Below, piece by piece: positions 391 through 15,107 of a stretch of DNA of 15,107 bases (the stretch's first letter is position 1; each line of letters opens with the position of its first letter). The stretch covers positions 1 to 15,107 of the forward strand of contig JALGZO010000036.1 in assembly GCA_025774865.1 (NCBI GenBank). Direction: 5' to 3'. The translations under genes and the position numbers were made by a program. The notes beneath the pieces are model-generated. The model did not search any database and was not told where the DNA came from. It was given only the letters and a program-made list of their open reading frames with translations. This DNA is from a bacterium (GTDB lineage: Bacteria > ARS69).

Positions 391-457
391 TCCTGACAGG
401 ACAACCTGGAATAGACGGCGGACCTGCCGTAGTTTGGGGCATTGCCACTCCGCCCCG

Positions 458-469
458 GGTCGGCCGACC
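458..469. promoter_or_regulatory. 12-bp perfect palindrome in the operon leader
   Basis: GGTCGGCCGACC reads the same on both strands and lies 67 bp before the HMG-CoA synthase start codon, in the presumed 5' leader. It could be a dimer-binding operator, and the operon's last gene has an HTH-like segment. GC-rich DNA yields such palindromes often, so this is weak. Confidence 0.2.
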
Positions 470-535
470 ACCGTCACATCCTCGGCGTTTGCCCGGAGAG
501 GCTTTTCCGCCGGCGGCACCGAAAGGAGCATGAGC

Positions 536-1588
536 ATGACCGTAGGGATCGTCGGGTACGGCGCCTGCATTCCCCGCCACCGGATCAAGGTCGAGGAGAT
601 CGCGAAGGTCTGGGGGGCCGATGCCCCCAGCTACAAGAGGGGCCTGCAGCTACGGGAGAAGTCGGTCCCGGCCCCCGACCAGGACGTCATCACTCTCTCG
701 GTCGAGGCGTCTCGCAACGCGCTGGCCCGCGCCGGCGGACTCGACCCCCAGGACATCGGGGCGATCTACGTCGGCTCCGAGTCGCACCCTTACGCCGTGA
801 AGCCGACCGGAACCGTTCTGGGTGAGGCGATCGGCGCGACCCCGAACGTTCACGTCGCTGATTTCGAGTTCGCGTGCAAGGCGGGCTCGGAGGCGATGTT
901 CGTGGTCGGAGGACTGGTGGCCGGAGACGCCATCCGTGTCGGGCTCGCGGTGGGCGCCGACACGTCCCAGGGCGCTCCGGGCGATGCGCTCGAGTACTCG
1001 GCTTCGGGAGGTGCGGCGGCATTCCTCATCGGCAGCGACGACCTCGTGGCCACGATGGACCACACGCACTCGTACATGACCGACACCCCCGACTTTTGGC
1101 GGCGTGAGTACATGCACTACCCGCAGCACGCTGGTCGCTTCACCGGCGAGCCGGCCTACTTCAAGCACGTGCTCGGGGCCTCGCGCGCGCTGCTGGAGAA
1201 GACAGGCACGAAACCGTCCGATTTCCAATACGCCGTCTTCCACCAGCCGAACGGCAAGTTCCCGATGGCGGTGGGCAAGAGGCTCGGCTTCACGCGCGAA
1301 CAGATCGAGACGGGGTGGCTCGTGCCGACGCTGGGCAACACCTACTCGGGCTCGTCTCCGATGGGTCTCACGGCGATCCTCGACGTAGCGAAGCCCGGCG
1401 ACCGGATCTTCATGTGCTCGTACGGGTCCGGATCCGGATCCGATTCGTTCATCTTCACGGCCACCGACCGCATCACCGAGGTGCAGGGACTCACGGCCAA
1501 GACGCGGGACATGCTCGATCACGACCAGATCTACCTCGAGTACGGGGAATACGCGAAGTTCCGCCACAAGATCCTCAGAGCGGAGTAG
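536..1588 (+). CDS. Hydroxymethylglutaryl-CoA synthase, archaeal type
   Basis: This enzyme condenses acetyl-CoA with acetoacetyl-CoA to HMG-CoA. The 350-aa product has the short archaeal-type length, not the longer eukaryotic form. Catalytic residues are visible: Glu82 (GSESHPY), nucleophile Cys114 (FEFACKAGSE) and His236 (VFHQPNGKF), plus the C-terminal glycine-rich SYGSGSGSDSF loop. Two in-frame ATGs occur at 530 and 536. AGGAG at 524-528 is only 1 nt from the first and 7 nt from the second, so 536 is chosen, giving MTVGIVGYG. It is followed after 9 nt by the thiolase and then a DUF35 protein, the arrangement of the archaeal thiolase/HMG-CoA synthase complex in which acetoacetyl-CoA is channelled. 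The role may be mevalonate or acetoacetate formation; the divergent HMG-CoA lyase favours the latter or a cycle between them. Confidence 0.93.
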   Translation: MTVGIVGYGACIPRHRIKVEEIAKVWGADAPSYKRGLQLREKSVPAPDQDVITLSVEASRNALARAGGLDPQDIGAIYVGSESHPYAVKPTGTVLGEAIGATPNVHVADFEFACKAGSEAMFVVGGLVAGDAIRVGLAVGADTSQGAPGDALEYSASGGAAAFLIGSDDLVATMDHTHSYMTDTPDFWRREYMHYPQHAGRFTGEPAYFKHVLGASRALLEKTGTKPSDFQYAVFHQPNGKFPMAVGKRLGFTREQIETGWLVPTLGNTYSGSSPMGLTAILDVAKPGDRIFMCSYGSGSGSDSFIFTATDRITEVQGLTAKTRDMLDHDQIYLEYGEYAKFRHKILRAE

Positions 1589-1597
1589 GAGCTGACC

Positions 1598-2755
1598 ATG
1601 CGAGATGTCGCAATCATCGGCGTCGGCGTCACGAAGTGCGGCGAGCTGTGGGACAAGTCGCTGCGCGACCTCTATGTCGAGGCCGCCCTGAAGGCAATCC
1701 GAGACTCTGGAGTGGATCGGCTCGACTCGATGGTCGTGGGGTGCATGTCGAGCGGGCTCTTCGTGGGGCAGGAACATCTGGCCCCGCTCCTGGCCGACTA
1801 CCTGGGGCAGTGCCCGATCCCGTCCACGCGGGTGGAGTCGGCGTGCGCGTCAGGCGGAGTGGCGATGCGGACGGGGTTCCTCGAGGTGGCGAGCGGCGTG
1901 AGCGACGTCGTGCTCGTCGGCGCGGTCGAGAAGATGACCGACGTCGGCGGGGACGAGGCGACGTACGCGCTGGCCACTGCGGCCGACCAGGAGTGGGAAG
2001 GGTTCAGCGGAGTCACGTTCCCCGGCCTCTACGCGATGATGGCCGTGTCCCACATGGAGCAGTACGGCACCACCCGCGAGCAGATGGCGGCAGTGGCCGT
2101 GAAGAACCACGAGAGCGGATCGAAGAACCCCAACGCGCAGTTTCCGATCCGGATCACGATCGACGACGTGCTGAACTCGGTGAAGGTCGCCGATCCGTTG
2201 CGCATCCTCGACTGTTCGCCGATCTCCGACGGGGCGGCGGCGGCGATCCTCTGTCCCGCCGATGTGGCGAGCCAGCTCGGGAAGAAGCAGCCGGTGAAGA
2301 TCCTGGGGATCGGACACGGCACCGACACCATTGCGCTTCACTCCCGCGAGAATCTCGCCGAGCTGGCATCGGCCGGCCGAGCGGCGCAGAAAGCGTACGA
2401 AATGGCCGGCAAGAAGCCCGCGGACATCGACGTCGCCGAGGTCCATGATTGCTTCACGATCTCCGAGATCATGGCGACCGAAGCGGTCGGTTTCTTCGAG
2501 AAAGGGAAGGGTGGACCGGCCGTCGAGGCAGGCGAGTCGGCGATCGGAGGGAGGATTCCCGTCAACCCGAGCGGCGGCCTCAAGTCGAAGGGGCACCCCG
2601 TCGGGGCGACCGGCGTTGCTCAGGTCGTCGAGATCGTCGAGCAACTCTGCGGTGAGTCAGGGGAGCGACAGGTGCAGGGTGCCCGTACGGGCCTGACGCA
2701 GAACATGGGCGGAACCGGCGCGAGCTCGGTCGTCCACATCCTGGAGGCGATGTGA
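1598..2755 (+). CDS. Acetoacetyl-CoA thiolase (SCP2/archaeal-type thiolase)
   Basis: This is a 385-aa thiolase-superfamily protein that would condense two acetyl-CoA into acetoacetyl-CoA for the preceding HMG-CoA synthase. The nucleophile is Cys83 in VESACASGG. His283 lies in EVHDCFT and His333 in [10 protein letters not shown], followed by NMGGTGAS near the C-terminus. The HDCF and GHPxGATG motifs are typical of SCP-x-like and archaeal thiolases, which lack the second catalytic Cys of classical thiolases. The Shine-Dalgarno AGGAG (1587-1591) overlaps the HMG-CoA synthase stop codon, suggesting coupled translation. Thermodynamically unfavourable condensation is expected to be pulled by direct transfer to the synthase through the DUF35 protein, as known from the archaeal complex. 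Confidence 0.92.
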
Positions 2756-2756
2756 C

Positions 2757-3149
2757 ATGCCGACCGCGAGAGCATGGAGGGAGTATCCACGGCGGTATCG
2801 CTACGAGGCGGCCGTCTGTACGGGGTGCGGCAAGTGGCACTTCCCGGCCCGGCTCGTGTGCGATGCGTGTCGTGGCGAGGAGTTCGAGACGAAGACCATG
2901 CGGCGCACGGGCAAGATCCTGACGTACACCGTCATCCGCGTGCCGCCAGCGCCGTTCAAGGACGAAGCACCCTTCGCCGTGGCCGTGGTCGAGATGGACG
3001 ACGGACCGCGTCTCACGACTCAGGTTGCCGACTGGAAAGAGGACGAGCTGCAGATCGGACAGAAGGTAAGACTCGAGTTTCGCCGCATCCAGAGCGACGG
3101 CGAGGCGGGGCCGATTCATTACGGCTACAAGGCCGTTCCGGTGAAATAG
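2757..3149 (+). CDS. DUF35 zinc-ribbon/OB-fold protein (thiolase-HMGS bridging subunit)
   Basis: The product is 130 aa. Residues 21-38 form a rubredoxin-like zinc ribbon with two CxxC pairs (Cys21/Cys24 in CTGC, Cys35/Cys38 in CDAC). Residues about 48-130 fit the OB-fold half of the family (TGKILTYTVI..., VRLEFRRI). In the archaeal complex this protein bridges thiolase and HMG-CoA synthase and helps hold the CoA pantetheine in a shared site. The ATG follows the thiolase stop after a single base, with GGAGG inside the thiolase end, so the two are translationally coupled. Acyl-CoA-binding DUF35 proteins also accompany other thiolases, but the context here fits the HMG-CoA role well. Confidence 0.92.
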   Translation: MPTARAWREYPRRYRYEAAVCTGCGKWHFPARLVCDACRGEEFETKTMRRTGKILTYTVIRVPPAPFKDEAPFAVAVVEMDDGPRLTTQVADWKEDELQIGQKVRLEFRRIQSDGEAGPIHYGYKAVPVK

Positions 3150-3524: not shown

Positions 3525-5630
3525 TCATCGAAGGAGGATTCCTTTCGTCGTGCGGGAGTCCTCCGACGACTCCAGATGGAAGAAATAAATACCGCCAGCA
3601 ACCCGTGAGCCGGAGTCGTTCCGTCCGTCCCATCGGAGAGAGGTCCTGCCGGACGGCGCCACTCCGTCCACCAGGCTCCTCACCACCCTTCCGCTGACGT
3701 CCGTCACGAACAGGCGAACGGGCTGCGCCCGATCCAACGCGAAGCTGATACGTGTCGACCCGACGAACGGGTTCGGTTCGCTCGGGAAGAGTGCGAACCC
3801 ACTGTCTCCGGCCGGCGCGAGCACGGTCGTTGTGCCTCCATGCGGCGCGCGAATGTCGAGGAAGACGTGACTGCCGGTGCCCGGCCGGTGGATGCGCAGC
3901 AGGGCGGAAGCACTCTGGGGCGCCACGTCTGCGTCGAACCAGAAGTTGTAAAGCGACTGGAACTCGACGGGATTCGAAGACGTCGGCCCCCCGTACGGCA
4001 GGGTCTCCCAGGTCGCGAGCCCCTCACTGGCGGCGAACGTCCAATCGTTCTCGGCGTCCTGGTCGATGTCGCGGAACCCCGCGTTCGTGATGACGGCGTT
4101 GCCGACGGGGATGGTGATCGCTTCCACGGCCCGGGCGCTGGTCTGGTTGTAGAGGGCCCATTCGTAGTGCCACGTGCCGCCCCCGAGGTCCGTGATGTCC
4201 TCGCTCAGGATCACGATTCCGTCGTCCGGAGCGACCGGATCCGTATACTGCTTCTGACCCCAGTTGAGCATGAACGGCCCCGGGTTCGCGAGCAGGCCTC
4301 CGCCGACGTCGCCAAAGTCCCAGTCCGACCCGTTCCAGTGCGTCGTGACCTCGCGCCACCCGAAGTTGTTGAAGAGCGTATCGTCATCGGCGACGTAGTA
4401 GATGCCCTCGTAGTAGTACTTGGCGCCCGGGATCTCCAGATCGCTCTCCCGAACCTCGAGGCGGGATTCGGTGGGACCGGACCCGGAGCCGTCATTGTCA
4501 CGAACGCAGTCCACCGGGATCCCGTCGAACCAGGAACCCCAGCAGTCCCACACCACCGTGTGCGGATTCACTTCGTCCCGAGGCCCCAGGTAGTACAGCG
4601 AGCCGTTGTTCCCGGCCGAGTAGGTGTCCGAACAGCCCACGTCGAGAATGCCGCCTCCGCCACCGGCGCAACCGAGATCGCACTGGTCGTTCGCCAGCGC
4701 CAGAAACGCATGCTTGAGCCAACTCCTCCCGATCATCTCCATCCGGCCGTTCATCTCACGGAACATCGCCATGCCGATCACGGGATGATCCTCGGCCATC
4801 GGAGCGTGCCAGGGAACGGGCACGTTCCCGTTGTTGCACGAGGTCGTCGCGAAGGAGAGACCGAGAAGGCCGTTCGGATACGTGCCTGAGCGTCCCAGGT
4901 AGTCCGTCAATCCGTAGACCTCGAGGAGCAGCACGTCGATGACGGGAGGATCCCCGCGGCGCGGATTCCGCGGTGCTACGTCGGAGGCCTCGCGACGCAC
5001 CAGCTGCGACTCGAGTCGAAGATCGTAGAGGCCGACGTATTCCCCGGCGAGCTCCGGCCGCCCGATTTCTCGAGCCCAATCGCCGCCGATCACGAGATCC
5101 CCTCCGCGGACCACCAGCTCGCCCGACGAGGCGTCGAAGCCGAATCCGGTGTTCCGGATTTCGAGCGGAGCGGACCGCGAGCCTTCCGGCCCCCGGATCC
5201 TGGCGAGGAGTCCCTCTCCCGGATCCACTTCGACCGCGAAATCGAAAAGCGCCGTCGAAGAGACGAGCTGTCGGAGGTGTGGATCCTCCACGCCGAGAAC
5301 GAACCCGCCTTCGTGGGGAAGCCTCACGTCATCCGTGAATCCCACGAACCCGTGATCCCGGAGGCGGAACGAGATGTCGACGCCGCTCGGAATGGCAAAC
5401 GAGTAGTGGTTGGCGGACGGGTTCAGCCCGACGAAGCGCTCGGCGCTAGCGGACTGGCGGAGCCGATCCAGCGTCAAGCCGAGCGACTCGAGACGTTGGT
5501 CGGTGATCGAGAGGGAGGTGATGCCCTGGGTCACACGCCGGATCTGGGTGTCGGCACTGGCGGCGACGGCAAATCCCAGAACGAGAAGCGCGATTCCCGG
5601 AGCTCGAGGGACGGATACGCGTCTACGCAT
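3525..5630 (-). CDS. Secreted protein of unknown function with C-terminal FlgD-like sorting module
   Basis: The product is 701 aa. Residues 1-26 form a signal peptide (RRR, hydrophobic core IALLVLGFAVA, cleavage after ASA). The body has no domain I can name. Residues about 260-380 hold six cysteines (265, 317, 321, 333, 363, 375), a Gly-rich run and WHAPMAEDHPV, SWLKHAFLAL and VGCSD segments. From memory these resemble large secreted hypothetical proteins of planctomycete-like bacteria, which I could not verify. Residues about 613-701 are a FlgD/T9SS-like Ig module: EPNPF, RLFVTDVSGRVV, LRWDGRND, VAGGIYFFHLE. Such modules end many exported proteins in Eisenbacteria and relatives. The AGGTG Shine-Dalgarno is 4 nt before the ATG. 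Likely extracellular or surface-bound; role unknown. Confidence 0.85.
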   Translation of the reverse strand: MRRRVSVPRAPGIALLVLGFAVAASADTQIRRVTQGITSLSITDQRLESLGLTLDRLRQSASAERFVGLNPSANHYSFAIPSGVDISFRLRDHGFVGFTDDVRLPHEGGFVLGVEDPHLRQLVSSTALFDFAVEVDPGEGLLARIRGPEGSRSAPLEIRNTGFGFDASSGELVVRGGDLVIGGDWAREIGRPELAGEYVGLYDLRLESQLVRREASDVAPRNPRRGDPPVIDVLLLEVYGLTDYLGRSGTYPNGLLGLSFATTSCNNGNVPVPWHAPMAEDHPVIGMAMFREMNGRMEMIGRSWLKHAFLALANDQCDLGCAGGGGGILDVGCSDTYSAGNNGSLYYLGPRDEVNPHTVVWDCWGSWFDGIPVDCVRDNDGSGSGPTESRLEVRESDLEIPGAKYYYEGIYYVADDDTLFNNFGWREVTTHWNGSDWDFGDVGGGLLANPGPFMLNWGQKQYTDPVAPDDGIVILSEDITDLGGGTWHYEWALYNQTSARAVEAITIPVGNAVITNAGFRDIDQDAENDWTFAASEGLATWETLPYGGPTSSNPVEFQSLYNFWFDADVAPQSASALLRIHRPGTGSHVFLDIRAPHGGTTTVLAPAGDSGFALFPSEPNPFVGSTRISFALDRAQPVRLFVTDVSGRVVRSLVDGVAPSGRTSLRWDGRNDSGSRVAGGIYFFHLESSEDSRTTKGILLR

Positions 5631-5964: not shown

Positions 5965-6534
5965 ATGCAGCGAGTGACCCCTTGGGCATTGCTCTGCGTG
6001 GCAGCGTGCGTCCCGGCCGTCTCGACCGCGACGCCGATTTTCTTTCCTACCTCGGATCGATACTACGACTACGACCAGTCCCCCGTCTGTTGGCCCGCTG
6101 CTCTGGACATGGCCCGGTTCCCGAGTTTCGTGGATTCCTCAGGTGTCACCTGGGTGGGTCACCTCGCCACCGTGACCTCTTCGGAGGAAGACGACTTTTT
6201 GACGACCACGTTCGGTCAGGATGGCTGGCTTGCCGGGGCGGACCTGGACAGAGATGGCGCGTGGACTTGGGAAGCCGGGGACGAGGTGGGCCAGGTCTTC
6301 TGGGACAACGGGAAGACCGTGATCTATGTAAACTGGTGCCCAGGCGCACCGTCTGGAGATCCTGCAGCTATCTGTCTCTTGAAGCTGGGGTCGCAGGAAA
6401 ATGGGGAGTGGGATGCCGTGGACGCCGTAGACGTCCACGGTTTCTACGTGGAGTACGTGCCCGATCCCGCATCCGGAGTTGAAGGTACGATCGAAGCGAC
6501 CTCCTGGGGAGCGATCAAGAACCTCTTCTGGTAG
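5965..6534 (+). CDS. Secreted C-type-lectin-like domain protein
   Basis: This 189-aa protein starts after a strong GAGGGGGGA Shine-Dalgarno. Residues 1-22 are a signal peptide (core WALLCVAACV, cleavage near STA). Residues about 42-165 match a C-type-lectin-like fold: CWPAALDMA and GHLATVTSSEEDDFL for the first helix-strand unit, GWLAGAD plus WTWEAGDEV for the WIG-like core, WCPGAPSGD, CLLKL, then WDAVDAVDVHGFYVEY as the closing strand. Cysteines 42, 125 and 137 are present; canonical EPN/WND sugar motifs are not clear, so sugar binding is unproven. The last residues, EATSWGAIKNLFW, form a detached tail that may be a sorting signal. Likely an exported binding protein. It is convergent with the giant gene, with 24 bp between stops. 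Confidence 0.82.
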   Translation: MQRVTPWALLCVAACVPAVSTATPIFFPTSDRYYDYDQSPVCWPAALDMARFPSFVDSSGVTWVGHLATVTSSEEDDFLTTTFGQDGWLAGADLDRDGAWTWEAGDEVGQVFWDNGKTVIYVNWCPGAPSGDPAAICLLKLGSQENGEWDAVDAVDVHGFYVEYVPDPASGVEGTIEATSWGAIKNLFW

Positions 6535-6558: not shown

Positions 6559-9500
6559 TCAGCTGGCCGGAGACGAACCGGATCCCGGGGAAGCGGACGA
6601 CTGAACGACGTCGTCGAGGGCGGGACCTGGGGCGTGACGGTGTCGGGAGCTGGGGTGTGACGTCGCGGAGCGCGCGATCGGGCGCGAGCCAAGGTAGACC
6701 TCGCCCGTGGTCCCGTGCAAGGACACCACGTCACCCTTCGCGATGCGGTGAACCACGTCGCCGGATTCGTCCACGATCTCGGCCAGGTGGCGGCGGCTGT
6801 CGACCCGGAGGCCGACGGCGCTCATGACCGCGTGCAGCGGCTTTCTCTGGAACCCGTTGATGGCCACGGCCGCGTGGGACGTCGCCCCTCCCTTGGCGGC
6901 GAGGAGTGCATCGGCGGAAAGGATCACCGGGATGTCGTCGGGGGTGGGGTTCTCCATCACCATCAGGATCCCGTCCACGTCGTCGCGCTCCTCGAGGCCG
7001 GAGGCCGTCAGTTCGTCCCGGTCCGCCTCGTCGAAGGCGGCCACTCCCCGGAACGCGCAACCGCACACACCGATGCCCTGAGTCGACTCGGCCCCCGGGT
7101 CCACGAAGGCGGTGGCCTCGGTATCGGTCTTCTTCTCCGACGTCCGGGATTGCAGGATGCTGAGGACGCCGCGATCGACCGTGAACTCGACCTCCTGGTC
7201 GGTTCCCTGGAAGCGCCTCAGGCGTGCCACCACGTGCCTGAGCCTCCGGTAGAGCATGGGCATGAGATTCTCGAGCTCGGAGATCGCGCGGAACGAGCCG
7301 AGGCCGGTCACGCCGCTCACCAGGTCGTCCCCGGCCGCCGAGAACTTGTACTCGCCCTCGAGCTCACGGACCCCGCTCTCGGTCAACCGCGTGTGCGGCA
7401 CCACGCCGGTGAGTGAAGCCGTGGTCTCGTCCAGATCGGGAGGCGCCTCGAGGTTGGTGCGGTTCCCGAATGCCATCTCCTGGACGATCGCGGCGGTGTG
7501 CCAGTCGTCGCAGATTCGTTTGATCTCCCGGTATCGGCACGCTGCATTCTTCTCCCACGAATTGAACACGGCGTGGACCGCGGCGATGACCTGACGATGC
7601 GGCTCTTCCAGGAAGGTATCGAGCTCCTTCCCGTGACCGCGCTGCCGCAGGACCGCCTTCGACGCCTGCACCACCTCTTTCATCCCTTCCCAGGGAACGT
7701 CGTCCTTGGCCTGGACGCCGTAGCGGGTCTTCATCTCCTCCACCAGGCCGTACGACTCGATGTCCACCCCCCAGACCGCCACGGCGAAGGAAGCGAGGAA
7801 GCGCCGATAGGAGTCGTACGCATGCCACGGATCCTCCGCGGCCAGCGTCTGGGCGATCGTGTCGTTCATCCCCACGAACACGACGGTGGATAGGAGTCCG
7901 GGCAGCGAGAGGACGGAGCCGCCGCGCACCGCCAGGAGGAGAGGCTGGTTCTCGTCCCCGAAGCAGCGGTGCAAGCCGTCGCGGTTCGCGATGTCCGCCT
8001 CGAGGATGCGCAGGTGTCGCTCGACGGCCCGCTCGAACCGGGTCCGGTCCCCGTGGTGCAGTCCGGAGCGCGGCAAGGCCGTGGGCAGGATGAAACCATC
8101 GCGGGTCGGCAGGCTCAGGTGGGAGATGTACAGGAGGCTGCAGCCCTTGCCGCCGTAGCGGGCCCGGAGACAATCTGCGGGATCTTCGCTCTCGACCCTT
8201 CGCTGGATCTCTCCGCGGTGCGAGATGTGGATGATGTCGAACGCGTCCTCCTCGTCCTTGCGATTCGAGATCGGCTGGCCGTCCAGTCGCTCGTTGAGGT
8301 TGCTCACGTGGTCCCGAATGTGACGGCCGGTCAGCTCGGTGAACTGGACCATGCAGTTCAGGTCGAAGAGTCCCCGCTGTAGGTTCCCGATCACGGACTG
8401 AAGCTCTTGCTTTCCCATCCCGAGCCGCTCGCGCATCGCTTCGAACGGAGAGATCACTCGCTGGAGCATCTTGTGGAAGCAGCGCTGGATCCCGTCGAGC
8501 AGATTCAGGGCCTCGGCGTACGTCCTCGAGCGGTCCACCAGCATGTCCGTCAGGTCGTGGAGCTCCCGGGACCGGACCCCGTCCAGCTCGAGGTTTCGAG
8601 CGCACGTGCGGATGATCCGCAGGCACGGTTGGAGCTGAACTCCTTCCTCCTCGTACCGGGATGCGACGCGTCGCAGGGCCAGGTACGCCGTCTCCTCCAG
8701 CAAGCAGTCCAGATGGTAGAGGTACCGGCGCTGGACGGGAAAACCCACGAGCTCCGTACACTGTCGCAAGTGACGCCGGAGCTCCCCGACGGCCTCCGTG
8801 GCGTCGAGCAGAGCCTCGCTCCGGTGGCACTCGAGAACGCGCTCGAGGCGTGCGAACAGCTCCTGCTGGGATACGCGGCGGATCTCTCCCTCCAGGCGGC
8901 CTACGACGTCGCGGAGCGCCTGCTCCGTTTCGTCGATGTTCAGGGAAGGGTCGCTCGGGTCGCGGTCGAGGAAGGTCTGCAGTGCGTCGGCGCAGGTTCG
9001 GATCTCCGGCAGGTCGCCGGAAAACGTCTCCGCCTTCGCCTTCAGGATCCGCAGATGATGGTAATAGACGAAGCGGTTGCGCTCCCGGAGACTCGTGACC
9101 GTCTCCTCGAGCTCCTCGCTCAGGCTCTTTCCGAACTCGCACCGAACGAGGGTGGCCGCGTACTGTTCCTGCCAGTCTTGTAGCCGCTCGATCACGTCGC
9201 CGGAGCCAAGTAGCTTTTCGAGATCCTCGACGATACGACTCGTGATCGTGAGGGGCGTGCTGCGCGAGCGCGCTTCTTCGTCCGCCGGCCCGGGCTCCGC
9301 ATGTCCTTCCACGACGAGTCCGCTCGTGTCGCCGGTCTCCAGATAGGTCTGGTACGCCCGGGCGAGTCGAAGAGTCGCGTCGCCGAGGGCGTGATGCGTG
9401 CTCCGGCGAAGCTCGTTCACGATGGAGCTGCCGCGCACGTGGACTTCCGCGATGTCGATGGTGTCGGTCCAGAGGCGGTCGATCACGGTGGGCTTGGAGG

Positions 9501-12500
9501 CGAGCCCGCCGATGTTGCGCATGAGGATCCGTACGAGCAGTGGCACCCGTCGGGCGAGCGTGCCATTGAGGAACCGGTCCAGCTCGGCGTTGAGGTCACG
9601 CACCTCGGGCTGCATGTTCTTGGCGTTCAGAAACGTCTTGAACGAAATGCCGGCGACCTTGGCGGCCAGACAGCGCAGCGCGAACACGCCTTGAGTCCGG
9701 TTCACCGACGAGTTGACGCGCTGGATCGCGGCCGCGACGTCGCGGATGCGTGAGCCCTCGATCCGTTCGGCTTCGTCGTCTCGGAACTCGAACAGCAGGG
9801 GCTCGAAATCGATCACCTCGCCCGGGCGACCGGCGAGCTCACTGATCCACCGGTCGGTGAGCAGGGTCCCCTTGCCGATGAGACGCCGACCGAGCATCTC
9901 CACACGACCATCCTGCACGCCGTGGATGACGAGGGAGTCCCCGATCATGTAGGGCACCGCGAGGGACTCCCCGCTGCGGAAGATGCGGTTGTTGACGAGC
10001 CCGAAGGCCCCGAGACGGGAAGCGAGGGGATGTTTGATCTTCAGATAGTGGTGAATGGCCTCCGTTCGGTTCGCCTCGTTCGGTTGCGCCACGCATGCGT
10101 GGTGAAGCATGCGGTCGAGCTCCTCGAGCAACGCCTGGTCATCCTCGTCGAGTGCGGTGGGCTCTCCGGCGGAACCGTCGACCGCCGCGGCGTCCGGCTC
10201 CGCCGGGACGGGCTCGACCGGGGCGGGAGCCTCGGGCGTCGGGGTCGCGACCTGCGGCACCGGCACGGCCGGGGCCTCTGCTTCGGCCGTCTCTTCCGCC
10301 TCGTATATGTGGGTCACCTCGCGAAGGGCTTCGTAGAGCGGTGTTCCGCGGGATTCCAGCTTCGCTGCGGCTTCGCGGAGCGCCGTCACGTAGTGGTCGA
10401 GCCGACTGCCCGGGATCGGGATCTGCTCCCGTTCGCACAGCCGCGCCACGATCGCGATCATCTCCTCGCGAAGCAGCTCGTAGAGTTCCTGCCCCTTGAG
10501 ACAGGCGAGACCGCGCGCCAGTGCGAGTGAAACCGCGAGAAGCGCGTTCATTCCGAGGTTCTGCTTGCGCTGCATCACGTGAACGCGCTCCTCGGCGGTG
10601 GCGTCGTCCCCGATCTTGCCGCGCCGCCGGGCGACTCGCTCTTCCAATCCCAGGAGAATCCGGTCCACGTCCTGCAGCGTCATGGACACGGCGCCGCGCC
10701 CCTCGATCACGGGAGCGATGATCTCCAGCACGTTCTCGACCGCGTTGAGGCAGCCCTTGCCCCCGTACCGCTGCGCCCGCGCGAACAGCGCCTGCAAGGA
10801 ATCGTCGCCGGACTCCTGGATTTGACCTTCACGGACTTCCTCGCGGAACGAGCTCACGCCCGGCTCCATCTCGCGGAACAGCTCGCCGTAGCGCTGGATC
10901 AGCTCGCGGTGCTCGGCCTGCTCCACGCGGGAGTCCACGAGATGGATGGCTTCCCCGGTACCGGCCGACGTCCCGAGGGGCGTGGCCCCGCGGAAGCGCA
11001 GCGTCACGCCCGATCCCGGCAACGCGATCTCGACGGTGGCGCCCACCGTGGGGACCCCGGCGTTGGTCGGCTCCTCGTACGCGGTCAGTCGTTGGAAGAC
11101 CGCTCTTTGACCTTCGGCGAGAGCGCTCGGCTCTTCGGCGGCGGCCCCCTTGCTCATGATCTCCGCCACGGCCTGGTACTTGACGAGGCGCTCCGTGTTC
11201 GCGCCGCCCCCCGCCTTGAGGCCGAGCGCGTTCACGGCCAGCGCGATGTGGGCTTCCATGTCGTCATTCGGGCTCTTGGAGCGGTGCGAGACCACGATCT
11301 CCAGGTTCTTCCCGAGCGCCACGAGCATGGCGATCAGTGTCTCGTAGAGCGATCCGATCTGGTTCGCCTTGATGAGCGCCGTGTTGATCAGACCCTTTCC
11401 AGCGTCCTCTTCGATCGTGCGGTCGTTCGTGGTCACGAGGTCGTCGCCGATCACGAAGATCCGATCGCCGAGGGCTTCGAGCAGCATTCGCCAGCCCTCG
11501 TGATCGTCCTCGGAGAAACCGTCCTCGATCGAGGCGATGGGCACGTCGTACTCGGTGATCGCCCGGCGATAGATCTCCAGGACGCCGTCCCGGTCGAGGA
11601 CGGCCTTGGCCTTGTCGCGCCAGAAGAGGTACATGCCCACGCTGTCCGGCATGTTGAACTCGTCACGATAGGCCTTTTCGAGCTCCGCCATGGCGGGGTC
11701 GAGGGCGATCGCCACGTCCGTGCCGGGACGGAGGCCGCACTCCTGAATCGTCTGTTTCATCATCGTCCACAGGCGGACCTCGGGCAGTGGAAACGAGCCC
11801 TTCTCGATGAACGGCGCGAGGCCGCCCTCGAGGCCGATGCCGATCACCCGGCACCCTTCAGCCTTCTCGATGATCTCCTTGAGGCGCGTCTGGAGGCGGT
11901 AGGTGATCTCCTGACACTCCTGATAGTCGGGAGCGCCCAGAATGAGGAACATCGCTTCCTGCATGCTGACGTTCGATTCGGGGTACTCCTTCTCCGTGTG
12001 TCGGCCCCCCATGCCGCAGTTTCGGTACTGCCAGGGCGCGGTGACCGGACCCAGCCGCGGGTGAGTGATCTCTTGCACGCGCCCCTCGAGCATGCGCTTT
12101 CTCACGGCGGAGGCACGCTCGATCCAAGTGCCCTGCTCGCCAACGGAGGCCGCGCGCTCGGCGGCCCGGCTTTCCCGCTCATTGAACTCCTTGTACTTCC
12201 CGGGATCCGCGAGCAGGAAATCGAGAAGTCCGACGGTTCCGAGGCCGAGCAGGAGACGGCCGACGTGGACGATCGGCAGCAGGTCCAGCGTCAGTCCGAC
12301 GGCCAGCAGGATCCCGGCGGGGGGAAGCGCCACGAGGGCGAGATTGCGGCTGGCCCGAGGCCCGGCCGCGGCCACCGCGAGGTTGTAGGGAGCGTCCGGA
12401 TAGTAATTGAGGCCCTCCCGCTTGATTCCGCGCGCGGTGCCGTACGGGGCGCGAAGGAAGGTCCCCAGATGAAAGAGCATTCTCGCCGCGAAGGGTTTCT

Positions 12501-12801
12501 TCAGGTGCGGGGTGACCTGCTCGAGTATTTCCGTGTTCAGAGCGTTGAGCCGGGCGGCCGTCAGGAAGTGACCGATCTCGTGGACGGCGACCCCGAAGTG
12601 GAAGCTTAGGTACATGAACAACGCCGAAACGATAGTCTCGGAGCTCAAGAAGATGAAGGAGAGCACCTCCGATTTGTGGACGGCCACGGACGGGAGGACG
12701 AGAACCGAGGAGATGAAGGCGACGTGGAAGGAGACCAGGATGTGGTTCGCGATGACCCACCCTTCGTGAAGGTGCGCCCGCGTCCGAACATCGCGACTCA
12801 T
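6559..12801 (-). CDS. Giant fusion: M50 membrane protease domain + circularly permuted enolase + PPDK-type ATP-grasp and phosphohistidine domains
   Basis: One unbroken 2080-aa frame. Residues 1-200: membrane domain with HEIGH (74-78), AAAGPRASRN (144-153) and LLDFLLADP (192-200), the layout of M50 site-2 proteases. Residues 226-550: enolase barrel with Glu282, Glu325 (LEGG), Asp368, Glu426 (SIEDGF), Asp453, Lys478 (ALIKANQIGS), His506-Arg507-Ser508 and Lys529, matching yeast Glu168, Glu211, Asp246, Glu295, Asp320, Lys345, 373-375 and Lys396. Residues 583-780: enolase capping domain placed after the barrel, with Ser612 (yeast Ser39), GGKGCLNAVENV and NLGMNALLAVSLA. Residues 834-885: Pro/Ala/Glu linker. 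Residues 890-1540: mostly helical, unknown. Residues 1545-1890: PPDK-like ATP-grasp with Lys1552, Arg1626, Glu1872, Gln1884 and Arg1886. Residues 1900-2040: swivelling domain with GGATSHAAV (His1976). The C-terminal PEP/pyruvate barrel of PPDK is missing; a Ser/Pro-rich tail ends the protein. The domains imply 2-phosphoglycerate/PEP chemistry and ATP-driven His phosphorylation at a membrane. The start ATG overlaps an upstream small frame (ATGA); its Shine-Dalgarno is weak. Confidence 0.9.
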   Translation of the reverse strand: MSRDVRTRAHLHEGWVIANHILVSFHVAFISSVLVLPSVAVHKSEVLSFIFLSSETIVSALFMYLSFHFGVAVHEIGHFLTAARLNALNTEILEQVTPHLKKPFAARMLFHLGTFLRAPYGTARGIKREGLNYYPDAPYNLAVAAAGPRASRNLALVALPPAGILLAVGLTLDLLPIVHVGRLLLGLGTVGLLDFLLADPGKYKEFNERESRAAERAASVGEQGTWIERASAVRKRMLEGRVQEITHPRLGPVTAPWQYRNCGMGGRHTEKEYPESNVSMQEAMFLILGAPDYQECQEITYRLQTRLKEIIEKAEGCRVIGIGLEGGLAPFIEKGSFPLPEVRLWTMMKQTIQECGLRPGTDVAIALDPAMAELEKAYRDEFNMPDSVGMYLFWRDKAKAVLDRDGVLEIYRRAITEYDVPIASIEDGFSEDDHEGWRMLLEALGDRIFVIGDDLVTTNDRTIEEDAGKGLINTALIKANQIGSLYETLIAMLVALGKNLEIVVSHRSKSPNDDMEAHIALAVNALGLKAGGGANTERLVKYQAVAEIMSKGAAAEEPSALAEGQRAVFQRLTAYEEPTNAGVPTVGATVEIALPGSGVTLRFRGATPLGTSAGTGEAIHLVDSRVEQAEHRELIQRYGELFREMEPGVSSFREEVREGQIQESGDDSLQALFARAQRYGGKGCLNAVENVLEIIAPVIEGRGAVSMTLQDVDRILLGLEERVARRRGKIGDDATAEERVHVMQRKQNLGMNALLAVSLALARGLACLKGQELYELLREEMIAIVARLCEREQIPIPGSRLDHYVTALREAAAKLESRGTPLYEALREVTHIYEAEETAEAEAPAVPVPQVATPTPEAPAPVEPVPAEPDAAAVDGSAGEPTALDEDDQALLEELDRMLHHACVAQPNEANRTEAIHHYLKIKHPLASRLGAFGLVNNRIFRSGESLAVPYMIGDSLVIHGVQDGRVEMLGRRLIGKGTLLTDRWISELAGRPGEVIDFEPLLFEFRDDEAERIEGSRIRDVAAAIQRVNSSVNRTQGVFALRCLAAKVAGISFKTFLNAKNMQPEVRDLNAELDRFLNGTLARRVPLLVRILMRNIGGLASKPTVIDRLWTDTIDIAEVHVRGSSIVNELRRSTHHALGDATLRLARAYQTYLETGDTSGLVVEGHAEPGPADEEARSRSTPLTITSRIVEDLEKLLGSGDVIERLQDWQEQYAATLVRCEFGKSLSEELEETVTSLRERNRFVYYHHLRILKAKAETFSGDLPEIRTCADALQTFLDRDPSDPSLNIDETEQALRDVVGRLEGEIRRVSQQELFARLERVLECHRSEALLDATEAVGELRRHLRQCTELVGFPVQRRYLYHLDCLLEETAYLALRRVASRYEEEGVQLQPCLRIIRTCARNLELDGVRSRELHDLTDMLVDRSRTYAEALNLLDGIQRCFHKMLQRVISPFEAMRERLGMGKQELQSVIGNLQRGLFDLNCMVQFTELTGRHIRDHVSNLNERLDGQPISNRKDEEDAFDIIHISHRGEIQRRVESEDPADCLRARYGGKGCSLLYISHLSLPTRDGFILPTALPRSGLHHGDRTRFERAVERHLRILEADIANRDGLHRCFGDENQPLLLAVRGGSVLSLPGLLSTVVFVGMNDTIAQTLAAEDPWHAYDSYRRFLASFAVAVWGVDIESYGLVEEMKTRYGVQAKDDVPWEGMKEVVQASKAVLRQRGHGKELDTFLEEPHRQVIAAVHAVFNSWEKNAACRYREIKRICDDWHTAAIVQEMAFGNRTNLEAPPDLDETTASLTGVVPHTRLTESGVRELEGEYKFSAAGDDLVSGVTGLGSFRAISELENLMPMLYRRLRHVVARLRRFQGTDQEVEFTVDRGVLSILQSRTSEKKTDTEATAFVDPGAESTQGIGVCGCAFRGVAAFDEADRDELTASGLEERDDVDGILMVMENPTPDDIPVILSADALLAAKGGATSHAAVAINGFQRKPLHAVMSAVGLRVDSRRHLAEIVDESGDVVHRIAKGDVVSLHGTTGEVYLGSRPIARSATSHPSSRHRHAPGPALDDVVQSSASPGSGSSPAS

Positions 12802-13064: not shown

Positions 13065-13541
13065 TCATCCATCTTCGCCCACCAACCGCAGAATGATGTC
13101 GACGGCGGCGGGGATCGCCTCCCCCACGGCCGGGTGCATGGGTCCCCCGATCGTGGTGCAATCGGCCACCTCGACGGTCACGATGGTCACTTCGTCGGCC
13201 ACCGGAAGCCCGATCCGCCGGCCCACCTGAAGCGGTTCGAATACCCCCACGTAGTGGGGAGATCCGCCGGGAACGATGTCGATGTCCTTCTCCCGGAGCA
13301 CCTGCAACGTCCCCGGCTCGGACTTTCCGGTCTGGGTCGCGTCGACGATCACGAGGCGAGAGACCCCGAGCAGCTCATCCATCAGGCGGAAGCCGGTGTC
13401 GGTCGTGTGCACGGCCTCGAGCCCGTCCGGTGACCTCTTCCTCAGTTCCGTAGCTACGGCGAGTCCGAAGGCGTCGTCGGCGAGCAGGTCGTTCCCGAGC
13501 CCGACGACTCGGACGGTCCTAGTCGCGGTGGATCGCGCCAT
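13065..13541 (-). CDS. [NiFe] hydrogenase maturation endopeptidase (M52/HycI-HyaD family)
   Basis: The 158-aa product matches peptidases that trim the C-terminal tail of the hydrogenase large subunit after nickel insertion. Signature residues are GLGNDLLADDAFG (residues 14-26; Asp23 at the first metal-ligand position), IVDAT (Asp67) and SPHYVG (His96), equivalent to Glu16, Asp62 and His93 of E. coli HybD. The length is typical. The ATG lies 23 nt inside the end of the large-subunit gene in another frame, so the enzyme is made together with its substrate. The gene's stop overlaps an ATG (ATGA) of a doubtful downstream frame. Confidence 0.92.
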   Translation of the reverse strand: MARSTATRTVRVVGLGNDLLADDAFGLAVATELRKRSPDGLEAVHTTDTGFRLMDELLGVSRLVIVDATQTGKSEPGTLQVLREKDIDIVPGGSPHYVGVFEPLQVGRRIGLPVADEVTIVTVEVADCTTIGGPMHPAVGEAIPAAVDIILRLVGEDG

Positions 13542-15078
13542 CGGAGTCCCGCCTGAGAGTGGTCTTCGTGTCCCCGCTCCGGTCGCGGATGCTCACGACG
13601 AGCGGCATGCTTCCCGGCAACGCGTGTGTCGCGCACCCGTGGCACGGGTCGTACGCGCGAAACGCCATCTCCACTTCGTTCAGGATCCCGTCCGGAACGT
13701 CCGGACCGGAGATGAGGCCCTTGGCCGCCTTCTCCACGCTCATCGCGATCCGCGCGGAGTTGTTCTGAGTAGCCACGATGAGATTCGCCTTCTCGATCAC
13801 GCCCTTCTCATCCGTCTGGTAGTGGTGGAAGAGCGTTCCGCGGGGGGCTTCGACCACTCCCACGCCTTCCCGGGGGGTGGCTTCGGGGAGCGTCCGTACG
13901 TGGGGATCGGTGATTTCCGGGTCGTTCGCGAGCTGCTTCAGCCGCTCCGCGGCGTAGAGGAGCTCGACGACCCGCGCCCAGTGGTTCGCGAGCGTGTGAT
14001 GTACCGGTTTGCCGCCGAGCGTTTCGTAGAGCTTCTCGTACGCCTCCTGGGCCGCCGGGGTCGTGAGGCGGTCCGCGACGTTGAGCCGGGCGAGCGGCGC
14101 CACGCAGTAGATGCCGCTGTCCTCGCCGTCGCGGAAACCGTGCCATCCGACCGGCTTCAGGTAACAGAATTTCACGTAACTCCACGGCTCGACGTGCTCG
14201 GCCACGTGATCCAGGTAGTCGGCGGCCGGGAACTTCACGTACTCACGACCGTCGGGTGCGACCACCCGGATCGTGCCGTCGTAGAAGTTCACGCAGTTGT
14301 CGCGGTCCACGAGGCCCATGTAGTAGGTGCGGTGCGTGAACGCGTCGGAGACGATGAGATCCACGTACTCCTGGTTCGCGAGAACCACGTCCTCGAAGAT
14401 CTTCAGCGTGAACTTCCCGAACTCGAGCGCCTCCTCGGCGACCTCCCGGATGGTCTCCGCCTCCCCGGGCTTGATGGATTTCGCGACGCCGCCGGGGAGA
14501 CCGAGGACCGGGTGGATGGCCTTCCCGCCGACCAGCGTGATGATCTCCCGGAGCCTTCTCCGCATGGAGATCACCTTCTGCCCGACCTCCACTCCCACCT
14601 TCGAGATGACTCCGAGGACGTTCCTCTCCTCCGGCGGAGCCGTCGGGCCCACGACGAAGTCCGGTCCCCCGAGGAAGTAGAAATGGAGCGCGTGATCCTC
14701 CGCCATGAAAACGCTGTAAATGAGCTCGCGAATCCTCTTGGCGGCCGGCGGGGGATCGATCTGGTAGAGGGCGTCGAGCGCCTTCGTGGCCGCCATGTGG
14801 TGAGCCGTGGGACAGACGCCGCAGATCCTCGAGGTGATCTGGGGCATGTCCTCGGCCGGCCGCCCGACGACGAACTTCTCGAACCCCCGCAGCTCCGGGA
14901 CCTGGAAGTACGCCCGCTCCACCTCGCCCTCGTCGTCGAGGAAGATGTCGATCTTGCCGTGGCCTTCCAGGCGAGTGATGGGGTCGATGGTGATCCGTCG
15001 ACGCATGTACTGGGCGTTTGCTCTCGAGGCGGCCGTCTGCAACGTCTCCTTCCGAGCTTCGGTCTTCGTGTCAGACAT
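13519..15078 (-). CDS. [NiFe] hydrogenase large subunit, group 3 (probably 3c/MvhA-like)
   Basis: This 519-aa catalytic subunit would oxidise H2 or reduce protons at a Ni-Fe(CN)2CO centre. The L1 motif RICGVCPTAHH gives Cys86 and Cys89; the L2 motif DPCHGCATH gives Cys479 and Cys482. There is no selenocysteine. The N-terminal ITIDPITRLEGHGKIDIF and the extended C-terminus after His485 (34 residues, beginning ALPGSMPLVV) resemble cytosolic group 3c enzymes such as MvhA, usually partnered with a small subunit, MvhD-like and heterodisulfide reductase proteins. The peptidase encoded next would remove that tail. The ATG at 15078 has AGAGGTGG about 6-7 nt upstream, preferred over the internal Met25. 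No twin-arginine signal would be expected here, since that signal is on small subunits. Group assignment is from memory of family patterns. Confidence 0.95.
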   Translation of the reverse strand: MSDTKTEARKETLQTAASRANAQYMRRRITIDPITRLEGHGKIDIFLDDEGEVERAYFQVPELRGFEKFVVGRPAEDMPQITSRICGVCPTAHHMAATKALDALYQIDPPPAAKRIRELIYSVFMAEDHALHFYFLGGPDFVVGPTAPPEERNVLGVISKVGVEVGQKVISMRRRLREIITLVGGKAIHPVLGLPGGVAKSIKPGEAETIREVAEEALEFGKFTLKIFEDVVLANQEYVDLIVSDAFTHRTYYMGLVDRDNCVNFYDGTIRVVAPDGREYVKFPAADYLDHVAEHVEPWSYVKFCYLKPVGWHGFRDGEDSGIYCVAPLARLNVADRLTTPAAQEAYEKLYETLGGKPVHHTLANHWARVVELLYAAERLKQLANDPEITDPHVRTLPEATPREGVGVVEAPRGTLFHHYQTDEKGVIEKANLIVATQNNSARIAMSVEKAAKGLISGPDVPDGILNEVEMAFRAYDPCHGCATHALPGSMPLVVSIRDRSGDTKTTLRRDSDGAIHRD

Positions 15079-15107
15079 CGGAAACCACCTCTGTTTCTGG
15101 GCCGTCG
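15071..15107 (-). CDS. 3' end of upstream gene, possibly hydrogenase small subunit
   Basis: On the minus strand the frame reads DGPETEVVSDV and stops at TGA (15073-15071), overlapping the large-subunit start by 8 nt (ATGTCTGA). Only eleven codons are visible, so identity rests on context: in cytosolic group 3 operons the small subunit commonly precedes the large one. The other two frames are also open to the edge, so this is tentative. Confidence 0.4.
   Translation of the reverse strand, partial: DGPETEVVSDV

What the first reader, a model, noticed from the sequence alone, without database searches (positions are those of the whole stretch)
6559..12801. 2080-residue membrane protease-enolase-dikinase fusion
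Seen: one uninterrupted frame with M50 motifs, enolase motifs and PPDK ATP-grasp/His motifs, each with key residues intact. Known: enolase makes PEP from 2-phosphoglycerate; PPDK/PEP synthase link ATP, a phospho-His and PEP/pyruvate. Inference: a membrane-tethered device that couples glycolytic PEP formation to ATP-driven phosphoryl transfer. I know of no described protein with this domain order.
Basis: partly seen in the sequence, partly recalled or inferred. Interest (0 to 1): 0.95.

Follow-up and report, generated by a model that had tools for sequence, protein, structure and literature searches.

The report
Membrane-bound rearranged enolase–dikinase protein
Several groups of little-studied bacteria carry a giant membrane protein in which enolase, an enzyme of central metabolism, has its two halves in swapped order yet keeps its whole active site, and works beside a phosphate-transferring enzyme, apparently an undescribed metabolic machine whose function is not yet known.

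Summary
In detail: window 12801-6559 (-) is one open frame of 2080 aa with an M50-like membrane domain, enolase and a PPDK-type ATP-grasp/His module. It is not a chimera. Thirteen other genomes, mostly from further bacterial lineages, carry the same complete single-ORF architecture (three more are cut by contig ends), and dN/dS is 0.13-0.33 in every domain. (1) The enolase is circularly permuted: the barrel (226-556) precedes the N-domain (557-800). All 12 active-site residues are kept in 30 of 30 compared members and in an independent stand-alone permuted enolase. (2) The dikinase part has no PEP/pyruvate barrel, so it cannot be a PPDK; it resembles truncated or small-molecule dikinases (VadK, RPH, HpeHI). 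A 645-aa middle domain has no known relative. Where M50-cpEnolase is not fused, a special dikinase gene lies beside or near it (10 loci). In 74 genomes of the WOR-1 phylum the two occur together in 6 and separately in none. Best guess: a membrane-tethered two-step enzyme in which the dikinase phosphorylates a hydroxy acid and the enolase dehydrates it (0.35); a regulatory phospho-His role is the main rival. The parts are known; I found no description of the permuted enolase or the combination.

The parts
6559..12801 (-). Whole ORF, 2080 aa plus stop: M50-like / permuted enolase / MID / ATP-grasp / His swivel
   Evidence: codon-position GC 0.82-0.92 at third position throughout, dN/dS 0.25 vs G002
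12127..12801 (-). aa 1-225: M50-like membrane domain; four hydrophobic segments; HEIGH at 74-78 (12568-12582), D194 (12220-12222) candidate third metal ligand
   Evidence: Pfam M50 sub-threshold; HExxH kept in all aligned members covering it except L070 and L086; hydropathy; coordinates
11134..12126 (-). aa 226-556: enolase C-terminal TIM barrel placed first; H268, E282, E325, D368, E426, D453, K478, H506, R507, S508, K529
   Evidence: Enolase_C E 3e-44; PDB enolases; rotated alignment
10402..11133 (-). aa 557-800: enolase N-terminal domain placed second; S612 (10966-10968) = Mg-II loop serine (yeast S39)
   Evidence: Enolase_N E 3e-12; rotated alignment
10135..10311 (-). aa 831-889: Pro/Ala/Glu-rich linker
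   Evidence: 39% identity to G002, dN/dS 0.61, the least constrained part
8197..10134 (-). aa 890-1535: MID, conserved mostly helical domain without known relatives
   Evidence: A6 alignment; no significant PDB or Pfam relative; found in all fused members and as the N-terminal part of a separate gene in G484
7117..8196 (-). aa 1536-1895: PPDK-type ATP-grasp; K1552, R1626, E1872, Q1884, R1886
   Evidence: PPDK E 3e-52 in PDB; residues 17/17 conserved
6667..7116 (-). aa 1896-2045: swivelling phospho-His domain, GGATSH with H1976 (6874-6876); no PEP barrel follows
   Evidence: PEP-utilizers 3.5e-5; His 17/17 in fused forms and in all partner dikinases

Best explanation
A conserved membrane-bound enzyme with two coupled active sites. 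SHOWN by sequence: an M50-like membrane domain with an intact HExxH motif; a circularly permuted enolase with every catalytic, metal and phosphate-binding residue; a barrel-less PPDK-type dikinase (ATP-grasp plus swivelling His1976), fused through an unknown MID domain here and encoded next door elsewhere. INFERRED, strong: the permuted enolase folds as an enolase and acts on a 2-phosphoglycerate/PEP-type phospho-acid; the dikinase makes phospho-His from ATP, releasing AMP. INFERRED, weaker: as in rifampin phosphotransferase and HpeHI, the His domain swings to an acceptor site (MID or enolase side) and phosphorylates a hydroxyl on a glycerate-like hydroxy acid; the attached enolase dehydrates the product to an enol phosphate (PEP or a close analogue) at the membrane. 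The M50-like domain is mainly the membrane anchor.
For: Permutation with 12/12 active-site residues in 30/30 members and in the stand-alone permuted enolase L086. Dikinase K/R/E/Q/R/H 17/17 in fused forms, with no PEP barrel. Enolase and dikinase are linked repeatedly: one complete ORF in 14 genomes counting this one; two adjacent ORFs in G484 (953 + 1179 aa); a nearby gene of a different dikinase subfamily in 10 loci; three genes in a row (dikinase, M50-like, permuted enolase) in G196. Co-occurrence in 74 genomes of the WOR-1 phylum: 6 both, 68 neither, Fisher p about 5e-9, not corrected for relatedness. Two sister loci have a two-domain PPK2 directly downstream, which would fit recycling of the AMP a dikinase makes; that two-domain PPK2 commonly acts on AMP is my own knowledge (a review, PMC8776046, was located but not read). 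Precedent for barrel-less dikinases phosphorylating hydroxyls: PMC4844700, PMC12167813.
Against: No acceptor is known and MID has no relative that would name one. The four named MAGs that carry the system also keep an ordinary enolase, so simple glycolytic duty is not needed. No neighbouring gene is broadly conserved apart from the dikinase, and PPK2 occurs in only two sister loci. HExxH conservation in nearly all members suggests that the M50 part does more than anchor. Structure models were too poor (pLDDT 51 and 44) to show domain contacts.
Confidence: 0.35

Rival explanations
1. Regulatory device (VadK-like): the barrel-less dikinase autophosphorylates and the phospho-His controls the attached enolase (or the M50 part) according to ATP/AMP/Pi, so that PEP formation at the membrane is switched rather than chemically coupled.
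For: M. tuberculosis VadK is a truncated PPDK with only ATP-grasp and His domains; [quoted passage not shown] The domain content of the dikinase part here is the same.
Against: VadK is short, without a large extra domain; here a 645-aa conserved MID (fused forms) or N- and C-terminal extensions (partners) accompany the dikinase, as expected for an acceptor site. Two different dikinase subfamilies keep the same linkage.
Confidence: 0.27
2. Regulated intramembrane protease: the M50 domain cuts a membrane substrate, and the enolase and dikinase parts sense PEP/2-PG and adenylate status.
For: HExGH and a downstream Asp are conserved in nearly all aligned members covering the region; the paralogue that lost the motif (L070) also lost the enolase site.
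Against: The M50 Pfam score is below cut-off; the G196 system has an M50-like protein without HExxH beside an intact permuted enolase. Pure sensors need not keep all 12 catalytic residues.
Confidence: 0.15
3. One reading: direct ATP-driven interconversion of pyruvate/PEP coupled to enolase.
For: Enolase and PPDK-type modules in one chain; a further neighbouring gene in G691 (L071:3-2384) has PPDK-type ATP-grasp and His segments with the canonical PPDK His-site signature.
Against: The PEP/pyruvate barrel of PPDK is missing from the fusion and was not detected in the partner dikinases; enolase barrels are not known to cleave PEP.
Confidence: 0.07
4. Assembly chimera or pseudogene without function.
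For: The genome is a fragmented draft (785 contigs, 8.3% contamination).
Against: Same architecture in 13 other genomes, purifying selection, all active sites conserved.
Confidence: 0.01

Closest known systems
Enolase (phosphopyruvate hydratase)
   Same: TIM barrel plus N-domain; all 12 active-site residues incl. SHRS phosphate site and Mg-II loop serine; about 35% identity in rotated alignment
   Different: Domain order reversed (circular permutation), tethered to a membrane domain, the residues after SHRS differ (KSPND instead of GETED), and an insertion of about 60 aa in the N-domain
Pyruvate phosphate dikinase (PPDK)
   Same: ATP-grasp and swivelling His domain with catalytic residues and GGxTSH signature
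   Different: No PEP/pyruvate barrel; preceded by MID instead; far below the PPDK equivalog cut-off (249.6 vs 843 bits)
Barrel-less dikinases: VadK, rifampin phosphotransferase, HpeHI/PpsAB
   Same: ATP-grasp plus phospho-His module without PPDK's barrel; another acceptor or target
   Different: Order, candidate acceptor domain (MID) and fusion/pairing with a permuted enolase; acceptor unknown
M50 (site-2 protease-like) family
   Same: HExxH in a hydrophobic N-terminal region, AGP motif, downstream Asp
   Different: Pfam score below cut-off; fused to metabolic enzymes; HExxH lost in two relatives

Membership tests
Enolase | Catalytic, Mg and phosphate-binding residues (yeast S39,H159,E168,E211,D246,E295,D320,K345,H373,R374,S375,K396) | tested here: met
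   12/12 in P0001, 30/30 members
Enolase | N-domain followed by C-terminal barrel | tested here: not met
   Barrel 264-548 precedes N-domain 582-721; permuted, so not filed as an ordinary enolase
Enolase | NCBIfam TIGR01060 equivalog cut-off (300 bits) | tested here: not met
   202.8 bits
Enolase | 2-PG dehydration activity | not testable with these tools
   needs an assay
PPDK | ATP-grasp with K22/R92/E323/Q335/R337 and His455 | tested here: met
   17/17 fused members
PPDK | PEP/pyruvate-binding C-terminal barrel | tested here: not met
   absent; the PPDK match ends at its residue about 513 of 874 and the chain ends
Small-molecule dikinase (RPH/HpeHI type) | separate acceptor-binding domain | tested here: inconclusive
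   MID is a candidate by position only; no relative found
VadK-type regulatory dikinase | autophosphorylation on His and control of a metabolic partner | not testable with these tools
   domain content alike
M50 peptidase | HExxH and third-ligand Asp in membrane segments | tested here: inconclusive
   HEIGH 74-78 and D194 conserved, but Pfam score below cut-off

The most novel reading that the evidence does not exclude
A previously undescribed, multi-lineage membrane-bound metabolic system: the first naturally occurring circularly permuted enolase that I could find, nearly always paired with a barrel-less phospho-His dikinase (two subfamilies, apparently recruited separately) and an M50-like membrane domain, catalysing ATP-driven phosphorylation and dehydration of a hydroxy acid at the membrane.
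Probability: 0.4. Interest if true: 0.88.

Novelty: categorically new. Interest (0 to 1): 0.78.

Why it matters
Enolase is one of the most conserved enzymes known, and I know of no natural enolase with a different domain order. A family that swapped the halves, kept the whole active site, moved to the membrane and stayed linked to a dikinase across several bacterial lineages points to an unrecognised reaction or control point around PEP. The fusion also names its own partner genes, so the hypothesis is directly testable with recombinant protein. It warns annotators too: these genes score as enolase or PPDK but cannot be counted as an ordinary copy of either.

Tried and rejected
Misassembly/chimera: rejected by homologues. 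Ordinary enolase plus PPDK fusion: rejected because the enolase is permuted and the PEP barrel is absent. 'The permuted enolase replaces the missing canonical enolase of this genome': not concluded; no other Enolase_C match in G000, but the genome is 92.7% complete and family members G002 and G003 have canonical enolases. Defence system: no PADLOC match. Mobile or viral: none of 23 pattern matches in viral contigs was a relative; on plasmids no record covers 80% of the query and the listed ones match only the enolase barrel. Conserved context: none apart from the dikinase. MID: no relative in PDB sequences or Pfam; scattered sub-threshold hits ignored. Literature: no paper on a permuted enolase in the open-access library.

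Full report
WHAT IS THERE. The frame 12801-6559 (-) is open for 2080 codons. Third-position GC is 0.82-0.92 all along it. Pfam and NCBIfam find, in order, a weak M50 match (65-159), Enolase_C (264-548), Enolase_N (582-721), PPDK_N (1613-1782) and the PEP-utilizers mobile (His) domain (1946-1984). Sequence search of solved structures gives PPDK for 1544-2043 (E 3e-52, ending near PPDK residue 513 of 874) and enolase for 264-550.

In ordinary enolases the N-domain comes first. Here it follows the barrel. After rotating the halves, the family aligns with four canonical enolases and all twelve active-site residues are identical: S612, H268, E282, E325, D368, E426, D453, K478, H506, R507, S508, K529 (yeast S39, H159, E168, E211, D246, E295, D320, K345, H373, R374, S375, K396). 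This holds in 30 of 30 members compared. A separate permuted enolase in G196 (L086:1899-3560-) keeps all twelve, too. One paralogue (G479:C59, L070) has lost all of them. Identity to canonical enolase is about 35% over 416 aligned residues. The dikinase part has K1552, R1626, E1872, Q1884, R1886 and H1976, conserved in 17 of 17 fused members, but the chain ends after the His domain: PPDK's PEP/pyruvate barrel is not there. Between enolase and dikinase lie a fast-evolving linker and a conserved 645-aa helical domain (MID) with no significant Pfam or PDB relative.

IS IT REAL. A genome-contig scan found relatives in two Aminicenantes MAGs, a Chromatiales MAG and a WOR-1 MAG. Whole-genome searches with a profile of the M50/start-of-barrel region found it in 10 of 247 genomes of the Aminicenantes' phylum, 6 of 74 of the WOR-1 phylum and 10 of 151 of the order of the Chromatiales MAG, but in only one of 398 drawn across that MAG's phylum, which was the MAG itself. 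In 386 relatives and domain-wide genomes it was found in G000 and G002, with a weak M50-like match in G196. Thirteen other genomes have the complete architecture in one ORF of about 2024-2216 aa; three more are cut by contig ends. Between this gene and G002's, dN/dS is 0.13 (barrel) to 0.33 (MID), and 0.61 in the linker. A chimera is excluded.

MODULARITY. The same parts occur separately. In G484 the protein is two adjacent genes, 953 aa (M50-cpEnolase) and 1179 aa (MID-dikinase). In the WOR-1 phylum and some genomes of the Aminicenantes' phylum, M50-cpEnolase has no dikinase part, but a dikinase-like gene of another subfamily lies next to or near it. The ten loci are L017, L065, L066, L067, L071, L072, L073, L074, L075 and L086. 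In G196 dikinase, M50-like protein and permuted enolase are three consecutive genes. Only L068, L069 and L070 show no neighbouring dikinase; L068 instead lies beside a canonical enolase. In the 74-genome WOR-1 phylum, the full-length partner dikinase (468-1267 bits; next, ordinary PPDK, at most 191) is present in exactly the six genomes that carry M50-cpEnolase (Fisher p 5e-9, relatedness not corrected). In a set of 30 chosen genomes it is in five that have a permuted enolase and in none of twelve controls; the other fused-form genomes, G458 and G479 lack it. A tree of the rotated enolases groups the fused forms with G484's split form (100/100) and the WOR-1-phylum forms together; placement of L070 and L086 is unsure because of long branches.

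M50 PART. Four hydrophobic segments lie in the first 200 residues. HExGH (HEMAH in L068) is conserved in all aligned members covering the region except L070 and L086, together with an Asp in the LLD motif (D194), a candidate third ligand (L069 and L071-L075 were not in that alignment). Pfam scores stay below the M50 cut-off, so I call it M50-like.

HOW IT MAY WORK. From established chemistry, ATP-grasp plus swivelling His makes phospho-His and AMP from ATP; without the PEP barrel the phosphate must go elsewhere. Known barrel-less relatives phosphorylate hydroxyls of small molecules (rifampin phosphotransferase, PMC4844700; HpeHI, PMC12167813) or act as regulatory His kinases on metabolic partners (VadK, PMC13400623). 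Enolase removes water from a phosphorylated hydroxy acid. Phosphorylation followed by dehydration is a coherent sequence, and the enolase's intact phosphate site fits it. I therefore favour a membrane-tethered kinase-dehydratase (0.35) over a regulatory device (0.27). The acceptor, the role of MID and any proteolysis are not shown. A two-domain PPK2 directly downstream in two sister loci (L081, L084) would fit AMP recycling, but is a single weak lead.

NOVELTY. Text search of the open-access library found no permuted enolase and no such fusion. Subscription papers were not searched. The folds are known; the permutation, MID and the combination appear undescribed. I rate it categorically new at the level of the system, with the function open.

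Noticed in passing
window 434-3149 (+): Three consecutive genes: ketoacyl/HMG-CoA-synthase-like (ACP_syn_III_C), thiolase, and zinc-ribbon/OB-fold (DUF35-like) protein, an arrangement known to me from archaeal mevalonate pathways.
   Followed up: partly
window 13065-15105 (-): NiFe hydrogenase large subunit and HycI-type maturation protease lie upstream of the fusion on the same strand; not seen beside the relatives examined.
   Followed up: partly
window 3525-5630 (-) and 5965-6534 (+): A 701-aa protein ending in a FlgD Ig-like sorting-type domain, and a small secreted-looking C-type lectin domain protein.
   Followed up: no
L070:2-2911 (-) (G479:C59): Degenerate paralogue: all 12 enolase residues and the M50 Glu are lost, and a second M50-like stretch follows in the same ORF at 856-887; a possible pseudoenzyme.
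   Followed up: partly
L086:1899-7110 (-) (G196): Three-gene run dikinase / M50-like without HExxH / permuted enolase; the genome has a second partner-type dikinase at C7 (L099:6367-9159) without a permuted enolase nearby.
   Followed up: partly
L081:3919-5436 (-) and L084:6881-8428 (+): A two-domain polyphosphate kinase 2 gene lies directly downstream of the fusion.
   Followed up: partly
L087:4964-11611 (-) (G002): The His domain of the closest relative lacks an in-frame stretch of about 28 aa shortly after the catalytic His; real or assembly-related is unknown.
   Followed up: no
L100:848-3460 (-) (G683:C145): An extra, more diverged partner-type dikinase lies beside genes that look like trehalose-6-phosphate synthase and phosphatase (names by eye, not tested).
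   Followed up: no
G000 whole genome: No enolase other than the permuted one was found in this draft genome, whereas family members G002 and G003 have a canonical one; incompleteness is the simplest reason.
   Followed up: partly
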